Made by a program: the position numbers and the translations under genes
Notes under the pieces: generated by a model
The model's input: only the letters and a program-made list of their open reading frames with translations
Databases searched by the model: none
What the model was told of the DNA's origin: nothing
Shown here: positions 24,095 through 31,339 of the stretch, piece by piece
Position numbering within the stretch: position 1 is the first letter of the stretch
Layout of the letters: each line of letters opens with the position of its first letter
Source: Microcella frigidaquae
GTDB lineage: Bacteria > Actinomycetota > Actinomycetes > Actinomycetales > Microbacteriaceae
Reading direction: 5' to 3'
Length of the DNA stretch: 64,000 bases
NCBI RefSeq assembly: GCF_014200395.1
Contig: NZ_JACHBS010000001.1
Coordinates: 1,798,001 to 1,862,000, forward strand

Positions 24095-24663
24095 GTGAGC
24101 TCGCCGTCGACGGGATTCCCGTGGCGGTGTCGTGTCGGGTATTGAAGCTTGCGCGCGCCCCGTATTACCGATGGGTGCGAAACCCTGAAGGTCCCGCCGA
24201 GCAGCTCCGAAAGCAGCGTGTTGCTGCCCTCACCGCCGCCCATGAGGACGACGTCGAGTTCGGCTATCGACTGTTGGCCGACGAAGCGCGCGATGCCGGG
24301 TTCCCGATGGCGGATCGAACCGCGTGGCGATTGTGCTCGAAGGCCGGGATCATGGCCGCGATCATCAAGACCCGCAAGAAGCGGGGCAAGAAGCCGGGCC
24401 CTCCGGTCTTCGATGACCACGTCATGCGCAACTTCACCGCTGATGCCCCGAACCAGCTCTGGCTCAGCGACATCACGGAACACAGGACTGCGGAAGGGAA
24501 GCTTTATCTTTGCGCGATCAAAGACGTGTTCTCCCGCCGCATCGTGGGCTATTCCATCTCCGACCGCATGCAGGCCCGCCTGGTCGTCAACGCGCTTCAG
24601 AACGCGATCGCCCGCCGCGGCGACGTTGCCGGCTGCGTGGTCCATTCCGACAGAGGCAGCCAA

Positions 24664-26114
24664 GGCGAATTCAACTGGTCGTCGCAACACCTCGATCAGG
24701 AGGTGTTCGATGGTTCGTCGTCAGCAGGGCGCGGACAGGGCGGTTCGTCCGAAGCTCCGCTCGCCGGGGCATCCGAAGTTCCAGAAGCCGGTCGAGGCGG
24801 CGTTCTGGGTGCAGATCGCGAAAGGGCTGCTCGCGGAGGAAGCCGCGGGTGTTGTCGGCGTGGCGTCCGCGGTCGGCGCGAGATGGTTCCGACACGCTGG
24901 CGGCATGGCGCCGTTCGACATCACCCAGCAGCCGTCGGGCCGCTACCTCTCGTTCGCTGAGCGCGAGGAGATCGCGATTCTCAAGGAGAAGGGCAAGGGC
25001 GTTCGCGAGATCGCTCGCTCCATCGGCCGCGATGCCGGGACGATCTCTCGCGAGCTGCGGCGCAACGCGGCCACGCGGGGCGGGAAGCTGGAGTATCGGG
25101 CCTCGGTCGCGCAGTGGAAGGCGGACATGGCCGCGAAGCGACCCAAGGTTGCGAAGCTTGTCGCGAACCTGAGGCTGCGCGCGTATGTCGAGGATCGCCT
25201 GTCGGGGAAGATCACCCGCTCCGATGGCACGGTCGTCACCGGTCCCGAGCCGCCGCGGTTCACCGGGAGAGGCAAGCCGCATCGGAAGGACAGGGCCTGG
25301 TCCTGGGCTTGGAGTCCGGAGCAGATCTCGCACCGGTTGAGGATCGACTTCCCGGATGATGAGTCCATGCGCATCAGCCCAGAGGCGATCTACCAGTCGC
25401 TCTACATCGAGGGCCGCGGCGCGCTCAAGCGCGAACTCGTCTGGAGCCTCCGTACGGGCAGGGCGCTGCGCGTCCCGAGGGAGCGGTCGCGGCGCAAGAC
25501 CTGGGCGCACGTCACGTCGGAGACGCTCATCAGCGAACGGCCAGCGGAAGCCGACGACCGCGCTGTTCCAGGCCATTGGGAGGGCGATCTGCTGATCGGG
25601 TTGGAGCGCTCCGCGGTCGGCACGGTCGTCGAGCGCAAGACCCGTTACACGCTGCTCGTCCACCTCCCGCGAGAAGAGGGTTATCGGCACAAGGAAACGC
25701 CGAAGAACGGGCCGGCGTTGGCTGGCTACGGCGCAGTCACGATGAAGAACGCTCTCGCGAACACGATGTCGGCGCTGCCGGCGCAGCTGACACGTTCGTT
25801 GACCTGGGATCGCGGCAAGGAGATGTCTGCTCACGCGCAGTTCCGCGTCGAGACGGGCATCCCAGTGTTCTTCGCCGATCCGCAGTCGCCCTGGCAGCGC
25901 GGCACGAACGAGAACACGAATGGCCTGCTGCGTCAGTACTTCCCGAAGGGCACCGACCTGTCCCGATGGAGCGCCGAAGACATCGAAGCCGTCGCATTCG
26001 CGCTGAACACGCGCCCTCGCAAGTCGCTCGGGTGGATGACCCCCGCGGAGGCCTTCAACGAGCAGCTACTGTTGCTCCAACAGGCCGGTGTTGCATCGAC
26101 TGGTTGAGCCCGGT
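24664..26114 (+). mobile_element. IS30-family element, copy 1
   Basis: This is a 1451-bp element with imperfect 28-29-bp inverted ends sharing TCAAC..GTCG..GCAACACC, and a 3-bp CAA duplication at 24661-24663 and 26115-26117. It is inserted between Gln and Phe of the HSDRGSQ-F motif of the IS3 orfB. The encoded transposase is identical to that of the inverted copy at 29290-30740. Confidence 0.93.
24710..26107 (+). CDS. IS30-family transposase
   Basis: This is a 465-residue protein. Helix-turn-helix [20 protein letters not shown] lies near residues 94-115. The DDE core shows [13 protein letters not shown] (first Asp), [13 protein letters not shown] (second Asp) and [19 protein letters not shown] (Glu), all classic IS30 signatures. 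ATG 24710 follows a strong AGGAGG. It is intact. Confidence 0.95.
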   Translation: MVRRQQGADRAVRPKLRSPGHPKFQKPVEAAFWVQIAKGLLAEEAAGVVGVASAVGARWFRHAGGMAPFDITQQPSGRYLSFAEREEIAILKEKGKGVREIARSIGRDAGTISRELRRNAATRGGKLEYRASVAQWKADMAAKRPKVAKLVANLRLRAYVEDRLSGKITRSDGTVVTGPEPPRFTGRGKPHRKDRAWSWAWSPEQISHRLRIDFPDDESMRISPEAIYQSLYIEGRGALKRELVWSLRTGRALRVPRERSRRKTWAHVTSETLISERPAEADDRAVPGHWEGDLLIGLERSAVGTVVERKTRYTLLVHLPREEGYRHKETPKNGPALAGYGAVTMKNALANTMSALPAQLTRSLTWDRGKEMSAHAQFRVETGIPVFFADPQSPWQRGTNENTNGLLRQYFPKGTDLSRWSAEDIEAVAFALNTRPRKSLGWMTPAEAFNEQLLLLQQAGVASTG

Positions 26115-26432
26115 CAATTTCGAAGCCGGAAAGTGCTGCGCACGTTGGAGCGTCATGGCCTGGTCGGATCGATGGGCCGCGTCGGTGCTGCCGGAGACAA
26201 CGCCGCCATGGAGAGCTTCTTCGCGCTGCTGCAGAAGAACGTCCTGAACCGCCGCTCCTGGACCACCCGCATGGAGCTGAGAATCGCGATCGTGACCTGG
26301 ATCGAGCGGAAGTATCACCGGCAACGCCGTCAGGCCGCGTTGGGCCGTTTGACCCCCATCGAGTTCGAGACCATGATGAGCACCAGCACGGCCGTTGCCG
26401 CGTGACTAAACCTGTCACCTAAACGTGCATCA

Positions 26433-29063: not shown

Positions 29064-29289
29064 TCGCTGAGTGCAGCCGTCGGTTGTTGAACCAGTCGAT
29101 GTATTCCGCGACGGCGAACTCCAGATCGTCGATCGATTTCCACGGCCCGCGGTGGCGCACGAGCTCTGCCTTGAACAGCGAGTTGAAGGCCTCGGCCAGG
29201 GCGTTGTCATAGGAATCTCCTCGGGACCCCACCGAGGCGACCGCGCCGGCCTCGGCGAGTCGTTCGGTGTAGCGAATCGCTCGATATTG

Positions 29290-30740
29290 ACCGGGCTCAA
29301 CCAGTCGATGCAACACCGGCCTGTTGGAGCAACAGTAGCTGCTCGTTGAAGGCCTCCGCGGGGGTCATCCACCCGAGCGACTTGCGAGGGCGCGTGTTCA
29401 GCGCGAATGCGACGGCTTCGATGTCTTCGGCGCTCCATCGGGACAGGTCGGTGCCCTTCGGGAAGTACTGACGCAGCAGGCCATTCGTGTTCTCGTTCGT
29501 GCCGCGCTGCCAGGGCGACTGCGGATCGGCGAAGAACACTGGGATGCCCGTCTCGACGCGGAACTGCGCGTGAGCAGACATCTCCTTGCCGCGATCCCAG
29601 GTCAACGAACGTGTCAGCTGCGCCGGCAGCGCCGACATCGTGTTCGCGAGAGCGTTCTTCATCGTGACTGCGCCGTAGCCAGCCAACGCCGGCCCGTTCT
29701 TCGGCGTTTCCTTGTGCCGATAACCCTCTTCTCGCGGGAGGTGGACGAGCAGCGTGTAACGGGTCTTGCGCTCGACGACCGTGCCGACCGCGGAGCGCTC
29801 CAACCCGATCAGCAGATCGCCCTCCCAATGGCCTGGAACAGCGCGGTCGTCGGCTTCCGCTGGCCGTTCGCTGATGAGCGTCTCCGACGTGACGTGCGCC
29901 CAGGTCTTGCGCCGCGACCGCTCCCTCGGGACGCGCAGCGCCCTGCCCGTACGGAGGCTCCAGACGAGTTCGCGCTTGAGCGCGCCGCGGCCCTCGATGT
30001 AGAGCGACTGGTAGATCGCCTCTGGGCTGATGCGCATGGACTCATCATCCGGGAAGTCGATCCTCAACCGGTGCGAGATCTGCTCCGGACTCCAAGCCCA
30101 GGACCAGGCCCTGTCCTTCCGATGCGGCTTGCCTCTCCCGGTGAACCGCGGCGGCTCGGGACCGGTGACGACCGTGCCATCGGAGCGGGTGATCTTCCCC
30201 GACAGGCGATCCTCGACATACGCGCGCAGCCTCAGGTTCGCGACAAGCTTCGCAACCTTGGGTCGCTTCGCGGCCATGTCCGCCTTCCACTGCGCGACCG
30301 AGGCCCGATACTCCAGCTTCCCGCCCCGCGTGGCCGCGTTGCGCCGCAGCTCGCGAGAGATCGTCCCGGCATCGCGGCCGATGGAGCGAGCGATCTCGCG
30401 AACGCCCTTGCCCTTCTCCTTGAGAATCGCGATCTCCTCGCGCTCAGCGAACGAGAGGTAGCGGCCCGACGGCTGCTGGGTGATGTCGAACGGCGCCATG
30501 CCGCCAGCGTGTCGGAACCATCTCGCGCCGACCGCGGACGCCACGCCGACAACACCCGCGGCTTCCTCCGCGAGCAGCCCTTTCGCGATCTGCACCCAGA
30601 ACGCCGCCTCGACCGGCTTCTGGAACTTCGGATGCCCCGGCGAGCGGAGCTTCGGACGAACCGCCCTGTCCGCGCCCTGCTGACGACGAACCATCGAACA
30701 CCTCCTGATCGAGGTGTTGCGACGACCAGTTGAATTCGCC
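29290..30740 (-). mobile_element. IS30-family element, copy 2
   Basis: This 1451-bp element encodes the same protein as copy 1 and lies in opposite orientation, with a 3-bp TTG (CAA on the element strand) duplication at 29287-29289 and 30741-30743. It is inserted between Gln and Tyr of HSDRGVQ-Y in another IS3 orfB, the same codon boundary as copy 1. Confidence 0.93.
29297..30694 (-). CDS. IS30-family transposase (copy 2)
   Basis: This 465-residue protein is identical in sequence to the one at 24710-26107, with the same helix-turn-helix and DDE motifs ([38 protein letters not shown]). The AGGAGG ribosome site is retained. Identity of the two copies indicates recent transposition or gene conversion. 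Confidence 0.95.
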
Positions 30741-31339
30741 TTGAACGCCCCTGTCGCTGTGATGCTTCAGCCCGGTTATCTCGCGGCCATGCCGCCTCCT
30801 GTTCCACAGGCCCATCTCCAACGCGTCCAACGCCAGATCGGTGCGCAAACTGGTGGAGAGCTGCCAGCCGACCACGCGGCGAGAGAACACATCGATCACG
30901 AACGCGGCATAGACCCAGCCGGCGAAAGTGCGAATGTAGGTGATGTCGGCCACCCAGAGCTGGTCGGGGGCGGTGGCGATGAAAGCCCGCTCGACCAAGT
31001 CCATCGGCAACTCGGCAGGGTTCCCGGCAATGGTGGTGCGCGGTCCTCGGCGCCGAGACACGCCCCGCAGCCCATCGCAGCGCATCAATCGCTCCACCGT
31101 GCAGCGAGCAAACGCGTGCCCCTCCCGCCGCAACTGCGCATGCACCTTCCGAACCCCATAAACCCCGAGGTTCTCCGAGTGCACGCGACGAATCTCGGTC
31201 AACGCTTTGTCGTCTTGCACGGCTCGAGCCGATGGCTCAGCACTCTTGGACGCGTAGTACGTCGACGGGGCGATCGGCAACTCCTTGCAAATCGGCTCGA
31301 CCCCGAACTCGACCTTGTGCGCATCGATGTAGTCGACCA

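What the first reader, a model, noticed from the sequence alone, without database searches (positions are those of the whole stretch)
24661..30743. Two identical IS30 copies inserted at the same codon boundary of two different IS3 transposases
Copy 1 (24664-26114) and copy 2 (29290-30740) each sit directly after the CAA codon in the conserved HSDRG(S/V)Q motif of an orfB, with a CAA duplication. The host elements differ, but the target is CAA-T(T/A)TCGA in both. Two independent hits at one conserved catalytic-motif site suggest an IS30 member that targets IS3-family transposase genes and disables competitors. The alternative is that one insertion was copied by recombination, but the flanks differ, which argues against this.
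Basis: partly seen in the sequence, partly recalled or inferred. Interest (0 to 1): 0.75.

Follow-up and report, generated by a model that had tools for sequence, protein, structure and literature searches.

The report
Jumping gene that targets jumping genes
A widespread group of bacterial jumping genes (IS30 type) appears to recognise one short stretch of DNA that encodes the catalytic core of another type (IS3), and so lands again and again in exactly the same codon of unrelated IS3 transposase genes.

Summary
Two identical 1,451-bp IS30 elements (24664-26114, +; 29290-30740, -) sit directly after the Gln codon of HSDRG(S/V)Q in two different IS3 orfBs, each with a CAA duplication. The own genome has a third identical copy and a 73%-identical fourth, also at this codon. 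Among relatives, 41 of 66 distinct insertions with intact 3-bp duplications lie in IS3 transposase genes (39 of 64 without two loci picked for their annotation), all 41 at the same codon boundary, in both orientations. Identical IS30s sit in hosts 29-37% alike; a sister genome has the natural empty site. Of the 25 other insertions, 13 fall in the top 1% and 20 in the top 5% of background for the same DNA motif, so recognition acts on DNA sequence. More distant IS30s show it in 0 of 19. Best explanation: an IS30 clade that selects DNA resembling CAC(A/T)(G/C)NGAC...GG....CA(A/G)|T(A/T)C, which IS3 genes supply because it encodes their second catalytic Asp. That it serves to disable competitors is not shown. 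The listings of ten searches of the held open-access library showed no such report.

The parts
24664..26114 (+). IS30 element, copy 1 (1,451 bp)
   Evidence: Identical to copy 2 and to a third copy at G000:640 kb; begins GGCGAATTCAACTGGTCG, ends GACTGGTTGAGCCCGGT
24710..26107 (+). IS30 transposase, 465 aa from ATG, copy 1
   Evidence: NF033563 transpos_IS30 232 bits, cut-off 80; HTH_38 at 76-119 and weak rve
24661..24663 (+). CAA target duplication, left, copy 1 (Gln codon of HSDRGSQ)
26115..26117 (+). CAA target duplication, right, copy 1
23716..26437 (+). Host A: IS3 element with the IS30 inside; inverted ends GGGACTGATGCAC / GTGCATCAGTCCC; own CAA duplication at 23713-23715 and 26438-26440
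   Evidence: Ends shared with the second copy at G000:639 kb, which has its own AAG duplication
23777..24094 (+). Host A orfA (HTH_Tnp_1)
   Evidence: PF01527
24082..24663 (+). Host A orfB, upstream half (piece searched; true start not determined), ends HSDRGSQ
   Evidence: NF033516 162 bits; rve
26115..26405 (+). Host A orfB, downstream half (QFRSRK...)
   Evidence: NF033516 from profile position 286
29290..30740 (-). IS30 element, copy 2 (1,451 bp)
29297..30694 (-). IS30 transposase, 465 aa, copy 2
30741..30743 (-). CAA duplication, left, copy 2 (Gln codon of HSDRGVQ)
29287..29289 (-). CAA duplication, right, copy 2
30741..31346 (-). Host B orfB, upstream half (piece searched), ends HSDRGVQ
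   Evidence: NF033516 198.7 bits; identical intact gene in G012
29059..29289 (-). Host B orfB, downstream part (QYRAIRYTE...), identity to the intact copy ends at about 29059-29062
   Evidence: 224 of 227 identical to G012
31340..31666 (-). Host B orfA (HTH_Tnp_1)
   Evidence: PF01527

Best explanation
The element belongs to an IS30 clade with sequence-specific target choice. Its transposase (reading head not identified) prefers DNA resembling CAC(A/T)(G/C)NGAC(N3)GG(N4)CA(A/G)|T(A/T)(C/T) and inserts 12 bp downstream of the GAC, duplicating the 3-bp CAR. IS3 transposase genes carry this sequence because it encodes H-S-D-x-G-x-Q-(Y/F) around their second catalytic aspartate, so they are the best and most repeated targets. 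Insertion splits the D-D from the E of the IS3 catalytic triad. Shown by comparison: the site, the duplication, independence of events, and a partial form of the motif outside IS3 genes. Inferred: that the transposase itself reads the motif, and the benefit to the IS30 (abundant targets harmless to the cell, and possibly carriage by the IS3 whose ends stay intact).
For: 41 of 66 clean distinct insertions lie in IS3 orfB (40 by an upstream HMM, L075 by motif and a downstream HMM), all 41 with GAY at -14..-12 and the break at the same codon; 39 of 64 without two loci picked for their annotation, 37 of 62 without the finding's own two. Pfam finds rve in 38 of 66 forward and 17 of 67 reverse flank pieces (those with at least 50 open codons) although the last ten codons were left out. 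Identical transposases sit in hosts 29%, 31% and 37% identical, and a pair differing at 2 of 451 residues in hosts 40% identical. Natural empty site in G012. Of 25 clean non-IS3 sites, 13 are in the top 1% and 20 in the top 5% of the motif background; oriented by the IS30 alone, G-14 is kept in 18 of 25, A-13 in 16, G-7 in 17, C-2 in 16, G0 in 18. None of the 25 shows IS3 similarity in any frame within 600 nt on either side. In eight carrier genomes 18 IS3 profile matches end at 285/286 and 18 start there. Outgroup IS30s: 0 of 19.
Against: 25 of 66 clean insertions are not in IS3 genes and 5 of those 25 show no motif at the 5% level (L028, L163, L064, L008, L085), so specificity is not absolute. 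The 95.6%-identical Gordonia plasmid copy (L008), the nearest relative with clean ends outside this genome, is one of them. In the non-IS3 sites only part of the motif is kept (G-8, which is G in 40 of 41 IS3 sites, is G in 5 of 25). The motif in IS3 genes is confounded with protein conservation; only the 25 non-IS3 sites separate the two. 35 of 122 clade rows had only one recognisable end, and 21 of the 87 two-ended rows lacked a matching duplication or enough flank.
Confidence: 0.92

Rival explanations
1. Survivorship: the IS30 inserts anywhere, but insertions in dispensable IS3 genes are the ones kept.
For: IS3 copies are dispensable and multicopy, and many ISs nest in other ISs (general knowledge).
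Against: Random insertion would scatter over about 900 bp of orfB and over other IS families; 41 of 41 orfB insertions are at one codon boundary. Non-IS3 sites share part of the DNA motif.
Confidence: 0.04
2. One ancestral IS3::IS30 insertion inherited as a compound element and copied by recombination or by IS3 transposition.
For: Within genomes the compound does recur end to end: copy 1 and L003 share exactly the IS3 (948 and 323 bp) with different 3-bp duplications; G212 has three such copies, one with a clear duplication. Weak host-IS30 correlation, Mantel r 0.16, 41 of 2000 permutations as high.
Against: Identical IS30s in hosts 29-37% alike; 24 host clusters at 60% identity among 40; both orientations (30 and 10); natural empty site.
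Confidence: 0.02
3. The target is chosen for DNA shape or an inverted repeat rather than sequence, as for other IS30-type hot spots.
For: E. coli IS30 uses nearly palindromic hot spots (PMC9333248, passages read).
Against: The 40 aligned IS3 sites are not palindromic about the duplication: complementary in half or more of the sites at only 6 of 25 spacings, at most 0.65. Fixed bases lie on one side (GAC, GG).
Confidence: 0.05
4. An evolved weapon: targeting was selected because it disables IS3 competitors in the same genome.
For: Triad split in every IS3 case; 4 of 4 HSDRGxQ IS3 genes found in this genome are broken, the 2 intact IS3 copies over the cut-off have HSDHGSV.
Against: No evidence of benefit to the IS30 from IS3 loss. 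Other carriers keep IS3 matches over the cut-off that span the site (G465 four, G015 four of which one has stops; their motifs were not read). Abundant neutral landing sites suffice as explanation.
Confidence: 0.15

Closest known systems
IS30 of E. coli (IS30 family founder)
   Same: IS30-type DDE transposase, terminal inverted repeats, preferred target sequences (dual specificity, PMC9333248 abstract and passages)
   Different: Its hot spots are nearly palindromic sequences or its own inverted repeats; no link with IS3 transposase genes appears in the passages read
ISLxc3 of Leifsonia xyli and its relative ISLxx5 (IS30 family)
   Same: ISLxc3 ends resemble ours (GGCGGATTCTAGTGGTCGTTGCAACA) and two copies had an NTG duplication (PMC2516522 passages)
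   Different: The authors state that they failed to detect a conserved target site; more distant IS30s tested here are not in IS3 genes (0 of 19)
ISs that target REP sequences (PMC1525189, title and start of abstract seen in listings)
   Same: ISs that repeatedly choose one multicopy sequence class as landing site
   Different: REPs are extragenic palindromes; here the target is protein-coding DNA of a rival transposase
Tn7 at glmS, and homing introns (recalled, not tested here)
   Same: Landing site is DNA that is conserved because it encodes an enzyme's essential residues
   Different: Tn7 spares its gene and uses a separate targeting protein; here one transposase and the target gene is destroyed

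Membership tests
IS30 family | IS30-type transposase over the curated cut-off | tested here: met
   NF033563 232.3 bits, cut-off 80
IS30 family | Single ORF filling the element, N-terminal HTH and C-terminal DDE core | tested here: met
   465-aa ORF in 1,451 bp; HTH_38 76-119; rve matched but below its cut-off, 26.3 against 32.6 bits
IS30 family | Terminal inverted repeats and short target duplication | tested here: met
   Ends GAATTCAACTGGTCGTCGCAACACC / GGGCTCAACCAGTCGATGCAACACC imperfectly inverted; 3-bp duplication
IS30 family | Copy-out-paste-in through a circular intermediate | not testable with these tools
   No experiment
IS3 family (the two hosts) | orfA/orfB with HTH and DDE integrase core, IS3 profile | tested here: met
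   NF033516 162 and 198.7 bits for the upstream orfB halves; PF01527 orfA; PF00665 orfB
IS3 family (the two hosts) | Inverted ends and 3-4 bp duplication | tested here: met
   Host A: inverted ends and CAA/AAG duplications. Host B: left end at 31710 only, right end lost, so open there
E. coli IS30-like target rule | Target is palindromic, or next to the element's own ends | tested here: not met
   Sites not palindromic; 0 of 66 clean sites has an own-type end within 60 nt

The most novel reading that the evidence does not exclude
A globally distributed IS30 lineage is a specialised hyperparasite of IS3 elements. Its transposase reads the DNA that encodes the IS3 catalytic motif, a target IS3 can hardly change without losing activity; it inactivates nearly every susceptible IS3 in a genome, and then rides on the dead element's intact ends when another IS3 transposase moves it.
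Probability: 0.35. Interest if true: 0.88.

Novelty: new variant of a known kind. Interest (0 to 1): 0.78.

Why it matters
Most ISs are thought to choose targets loosely (general knowledge). A simple one-protein IS that finds the active-site codons of a rival transposase across phyla would be a clean case of element-on-element parasitism. It offers a small sequence-specific integrase with a readable target of about 24 bp, and a prediction that IS3 families escape only by changing bases near their own catalytic Asp. It may also explain 'IS3 family transposase' fragments in public genomes that end in ...HSDRGSQG(E/G)FN.

Tried and rejected
Coincidence, duplication of one insertion, random insertion with survivorship, and palindrome recognition were considered and rejected (see rivals). 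A core pattern scan of the own genome gave 0 forward and 0 reverse matches, and its reversed control also gave 0, so that scan alone has little power. Phage records: all 40 with a match are below 60% identity. No solved structure is related by sequence at E 0.01. The 120 relatives listed of 8,000 scored carried no ISfinder name. The ten literature searches showed no report of IS30 targeting IS3; three of them held far more papers than were listed, and subscription papers are not held.

Rows dropped before counts: of 187 transposase hits 13 had no recognisable end; the 174 left gave 149 unique; 27 fell to the 54% identity cut or are the truncated duplicates L125, L176, L178, leaving 122; of these 87 have both ends and 66 a matching 3-bp duplication with enough flank. 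The five rows at 48-54% identity are outside both groups: L100 (HSD-type motif, with duplication) and L106 (downstream half) look like IS3 sites, L034, L038 and L095 do not. L009 and L010 were fetched because their annotation named IS3; results are given with and without them. The HMM used was seeded with ten of the pieces it then classified; Pfam gave a similar picture independently. L183 came from a host-based search and enters only the 127-row count (65 of 127 with the in-frame motif, 87 of 127 IS3-like on either side). The eight genomes were chosen because they carry clade elements, so that count is not a rate.
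Full report
OBSERVATION. Copy 1 (24664-26114, +) and copy 2 (29290-30740, -) are identical and each is bounded by a 3-bp direct duplication, CAA on the strand of the interrupted gene. Each interrupts an orfB of an IS3-family element directly after the Gln codon of HSDRGSQ (host A) or HSDRGVQ (host B). NF033516 (IS3 transposase) matches the upstream halves with 162 and 198.7 bits against a cut-off of 160, and the own-genome search shows the two halves of each broken gene meeting at profile position 286. 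The hosts are 29% identical over the compared part.

OWN GENOME. The 2.55-Mb single-contig genome holds three identical copies and one 73%-identical relative. The third identical copy lies in a second copy of host A at 639-642 kb. The two host A copies share the IS3 exactly end to end (948 bp left, 323 bp right) and each has its own duplication, CAA and AAG, so the IS3 itself has moved, either before or after the IS30 entered. The diverged relative sits, in the opposite orientation, after the CAG of HSDRGTQ in a third IS3. Among IS3 orfB genes over the NF033516 cut-off that reach the motif, 4 of 4 with HSDRGxQ are broken at position 286; 2 further intact copies with equal scores read HSDHGSV (motifs read in the 30 of 36 matches that were given loci). 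A core pattern for the site has no intact match in the genome; its reversed control also gives none, so this adds little on its own.

EMPTY SITE. Genome G012 of the same genus carries host B with 970 bp of exact upstream identity and 224 of 227 identical bases downstream, reading HSDRGVQ|YRAIRYTE with one CAA and no IS30.

SURVEY. Only the best matches of the genome searches were given loci. After removing duplicates and cutting at 54% identity, 122 insertions remain, 87 with both ends, 66 with a matching 3-bp duplication. Of the 66, 40 have an IS3 orfB on the upstream side by an HMM run on flanks from which the last ten codons were removed, and one more (L075) by its motif and a downstream HMM: 41 of 66, or 39 of 64 without the two chosen plasmid loci, or 37 of 62 without the finding's own two. 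All 41 have GAY (the catalytic Asp codon) at -14 to -12 and the break at the same codon boundary. The duplicated triplet is CAG or CAA in 34 of the 40 HMM-called sites. Pfam's rve is found in 38 of 66 forward and 17 of 67 reverse flank pieces, the pieces being those with at least 50 open codons. Records with relatives include Streptomyces, Rhodococcus, Nocardia, Brachybacterium, Leucobacter, Rhizobium, Bradyrhizobium, Burkholderia, Pseudomonas, Nitrospira and Gemmatimonadetes; not each of these has a clean IS3 site.

INDEPENDENCE. Three pairs of identical transposases sit in hosts 29%, 31% and 37% identical, and a fourth pair, differing at 2 of 451 residues, in hosts 40% identical; 40 hosts fall into 24 clusters at 60% identity; host and IS30 distances are only weakly correlated (Mantel r 0.16, 41 of 2000 permutations as high). 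Genomes G212, G255, G320 and G465 each hold copies with identical transposases in several different places. Orientation is same-direction in 30 and opposite in 10 of 40 (binomial two-sided P 0.002).

DNA-LEVEL RECOGNITION. The 25 clean sites outside IS3 genes separate DNA recognition from protein conservation. None of them shows IS3 similarity in any frame of up to 600 nt on either side at E 0.001. Scored with the matrix of the IS3 sites, 13 of 25 lie in the top 1% of background and 20 of 25 in the top 5% (0.25 and 1.25 expected). Five do not (L028, L163, L064, L008, L085). Oriented only by the IS30's own direction, they keep G at -14 in 18, A at -13 in 16, G at -7 in 17, C at -2 in 16 and G at 0 in 18 of 25, while G at -8 is kept in only 5 of 25. 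A matrix built without the two window sites ranks both their empty targets (25.3 and 27.2) above each of 127,894 window positions; the best two of these (14.3 and 10.6) are the left halves of the two sites themselves, and inside the IS30 the best score is 4.7.

BREAKPOINT VIEW. In eight carrier genomes (chosen as carriers) 18 IS3 profile matches end at 285/286 and 18 begin there. Other ends below 350, orfA pieces apart, are 11 at 10 positions; among other starts, 21 weak matches begin at 228-233, which I take for partial alignments to other DDE transposases (my count of the rows). Ten stretches around such breaks were fetched: in six (L231-L236) the motif is followed directly by a clade left end and a clade transposase, one of them in an HSDHGSV gene; L237 has the motif and a clade-like end but no transposase in the stretch; L238, L239 and L240 hold a clade transposase but no motif half.

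CONTROL. IS30-type elements below 48% identity: 0 of 19 at this motif; their ends are less certainly placed, and only two have a matching duplication. For the related ISLxc3 the authors of PMC2516522 report that they could not find a conserved target (passages).

MECHANISM. Shown: exact site, 3-bp duplication, independent recurrence, part of the motif outside IS3 genes. Inferred: the transposase itself reads the motif, probably through N-terminal DNA-binding parts (HTH_38 at 76-119, and the segment before it); insertion separates D-D from E and must abolish IS3 transposase activity; IS3 genes are attractive because the target encodes an active site and is therefore present in most IS3 elements. 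IS3::IS30 compounds recur end to end within genomes, so passive carriage by IS3 is possible, though IS30 hitting each IS3 copy separately cannot be told apart from it. 0 of 66 clean sites lies within 60 nt of an own-type end, so own-end targeting, known for E. coli IS30, is not what is seen here.

LITERATURE. The listings of ten searches showed no description of an IS30 targeting IS3 transposase genes; passages of PMC2516522, PMC9333248, PMC4803752 and PMC9208149 were read. E. coli IS30 is described as choosing nearly palindromic hot spots or its own inverted repeats (PMC9333248). Subscription literature, ISfinder entries and preprints are not covered.

VERDICT. A real and strong target specificity of an IS30 clade, not found described in the searches named.

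Noticed in passing
window 23081-23716 and 26433-27479, - strand: A glycoside hydrolase family 65 gene is split by host A (the IS3 carrying IS30 copy 1); PF03632 matches 147-330 and 2-147 on the two sides.
   Followed up: partly
window 21751-23034 and 27783-29006, + strand: Two related IS256/Mutator-type transposase genes (PF00872) flank the GH65 fragments; identity of host B to its intact relative ends at about 29059, next to the second one.
   Followed up: partly
window 31710-32303, - strand: A third IS3 fragment (NF033516 144-247 and 1-84) is cut by host B, whose left end is at 31710: an IS30 in an IS3 in an IS3. It ends before the HSDRG motif.
   Followed up: partly
L004 and L051: The diverged IS30 relative of this genome and one in a Microcella metagenome bin differ at 2 of 451 transposase residues, in different IS3 hosts (40% identical): probably recent transfer between lineages.
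   Followed up: no
L162 and L163 (genome G465): Two identical IS30 copies share 2,487 bp of right flank but not the left, where L162 has an IS3 half, as expected from recombination between copies.
   Followed up: no
L186 and L187 (G000:436 kb and 1160 kb): The only intact IS3 orfB genes over the cut-off read HSDHGSV; the same variant is hit by clade members in G212 (L235) and Georgenia (L053).
   Followed up: partly
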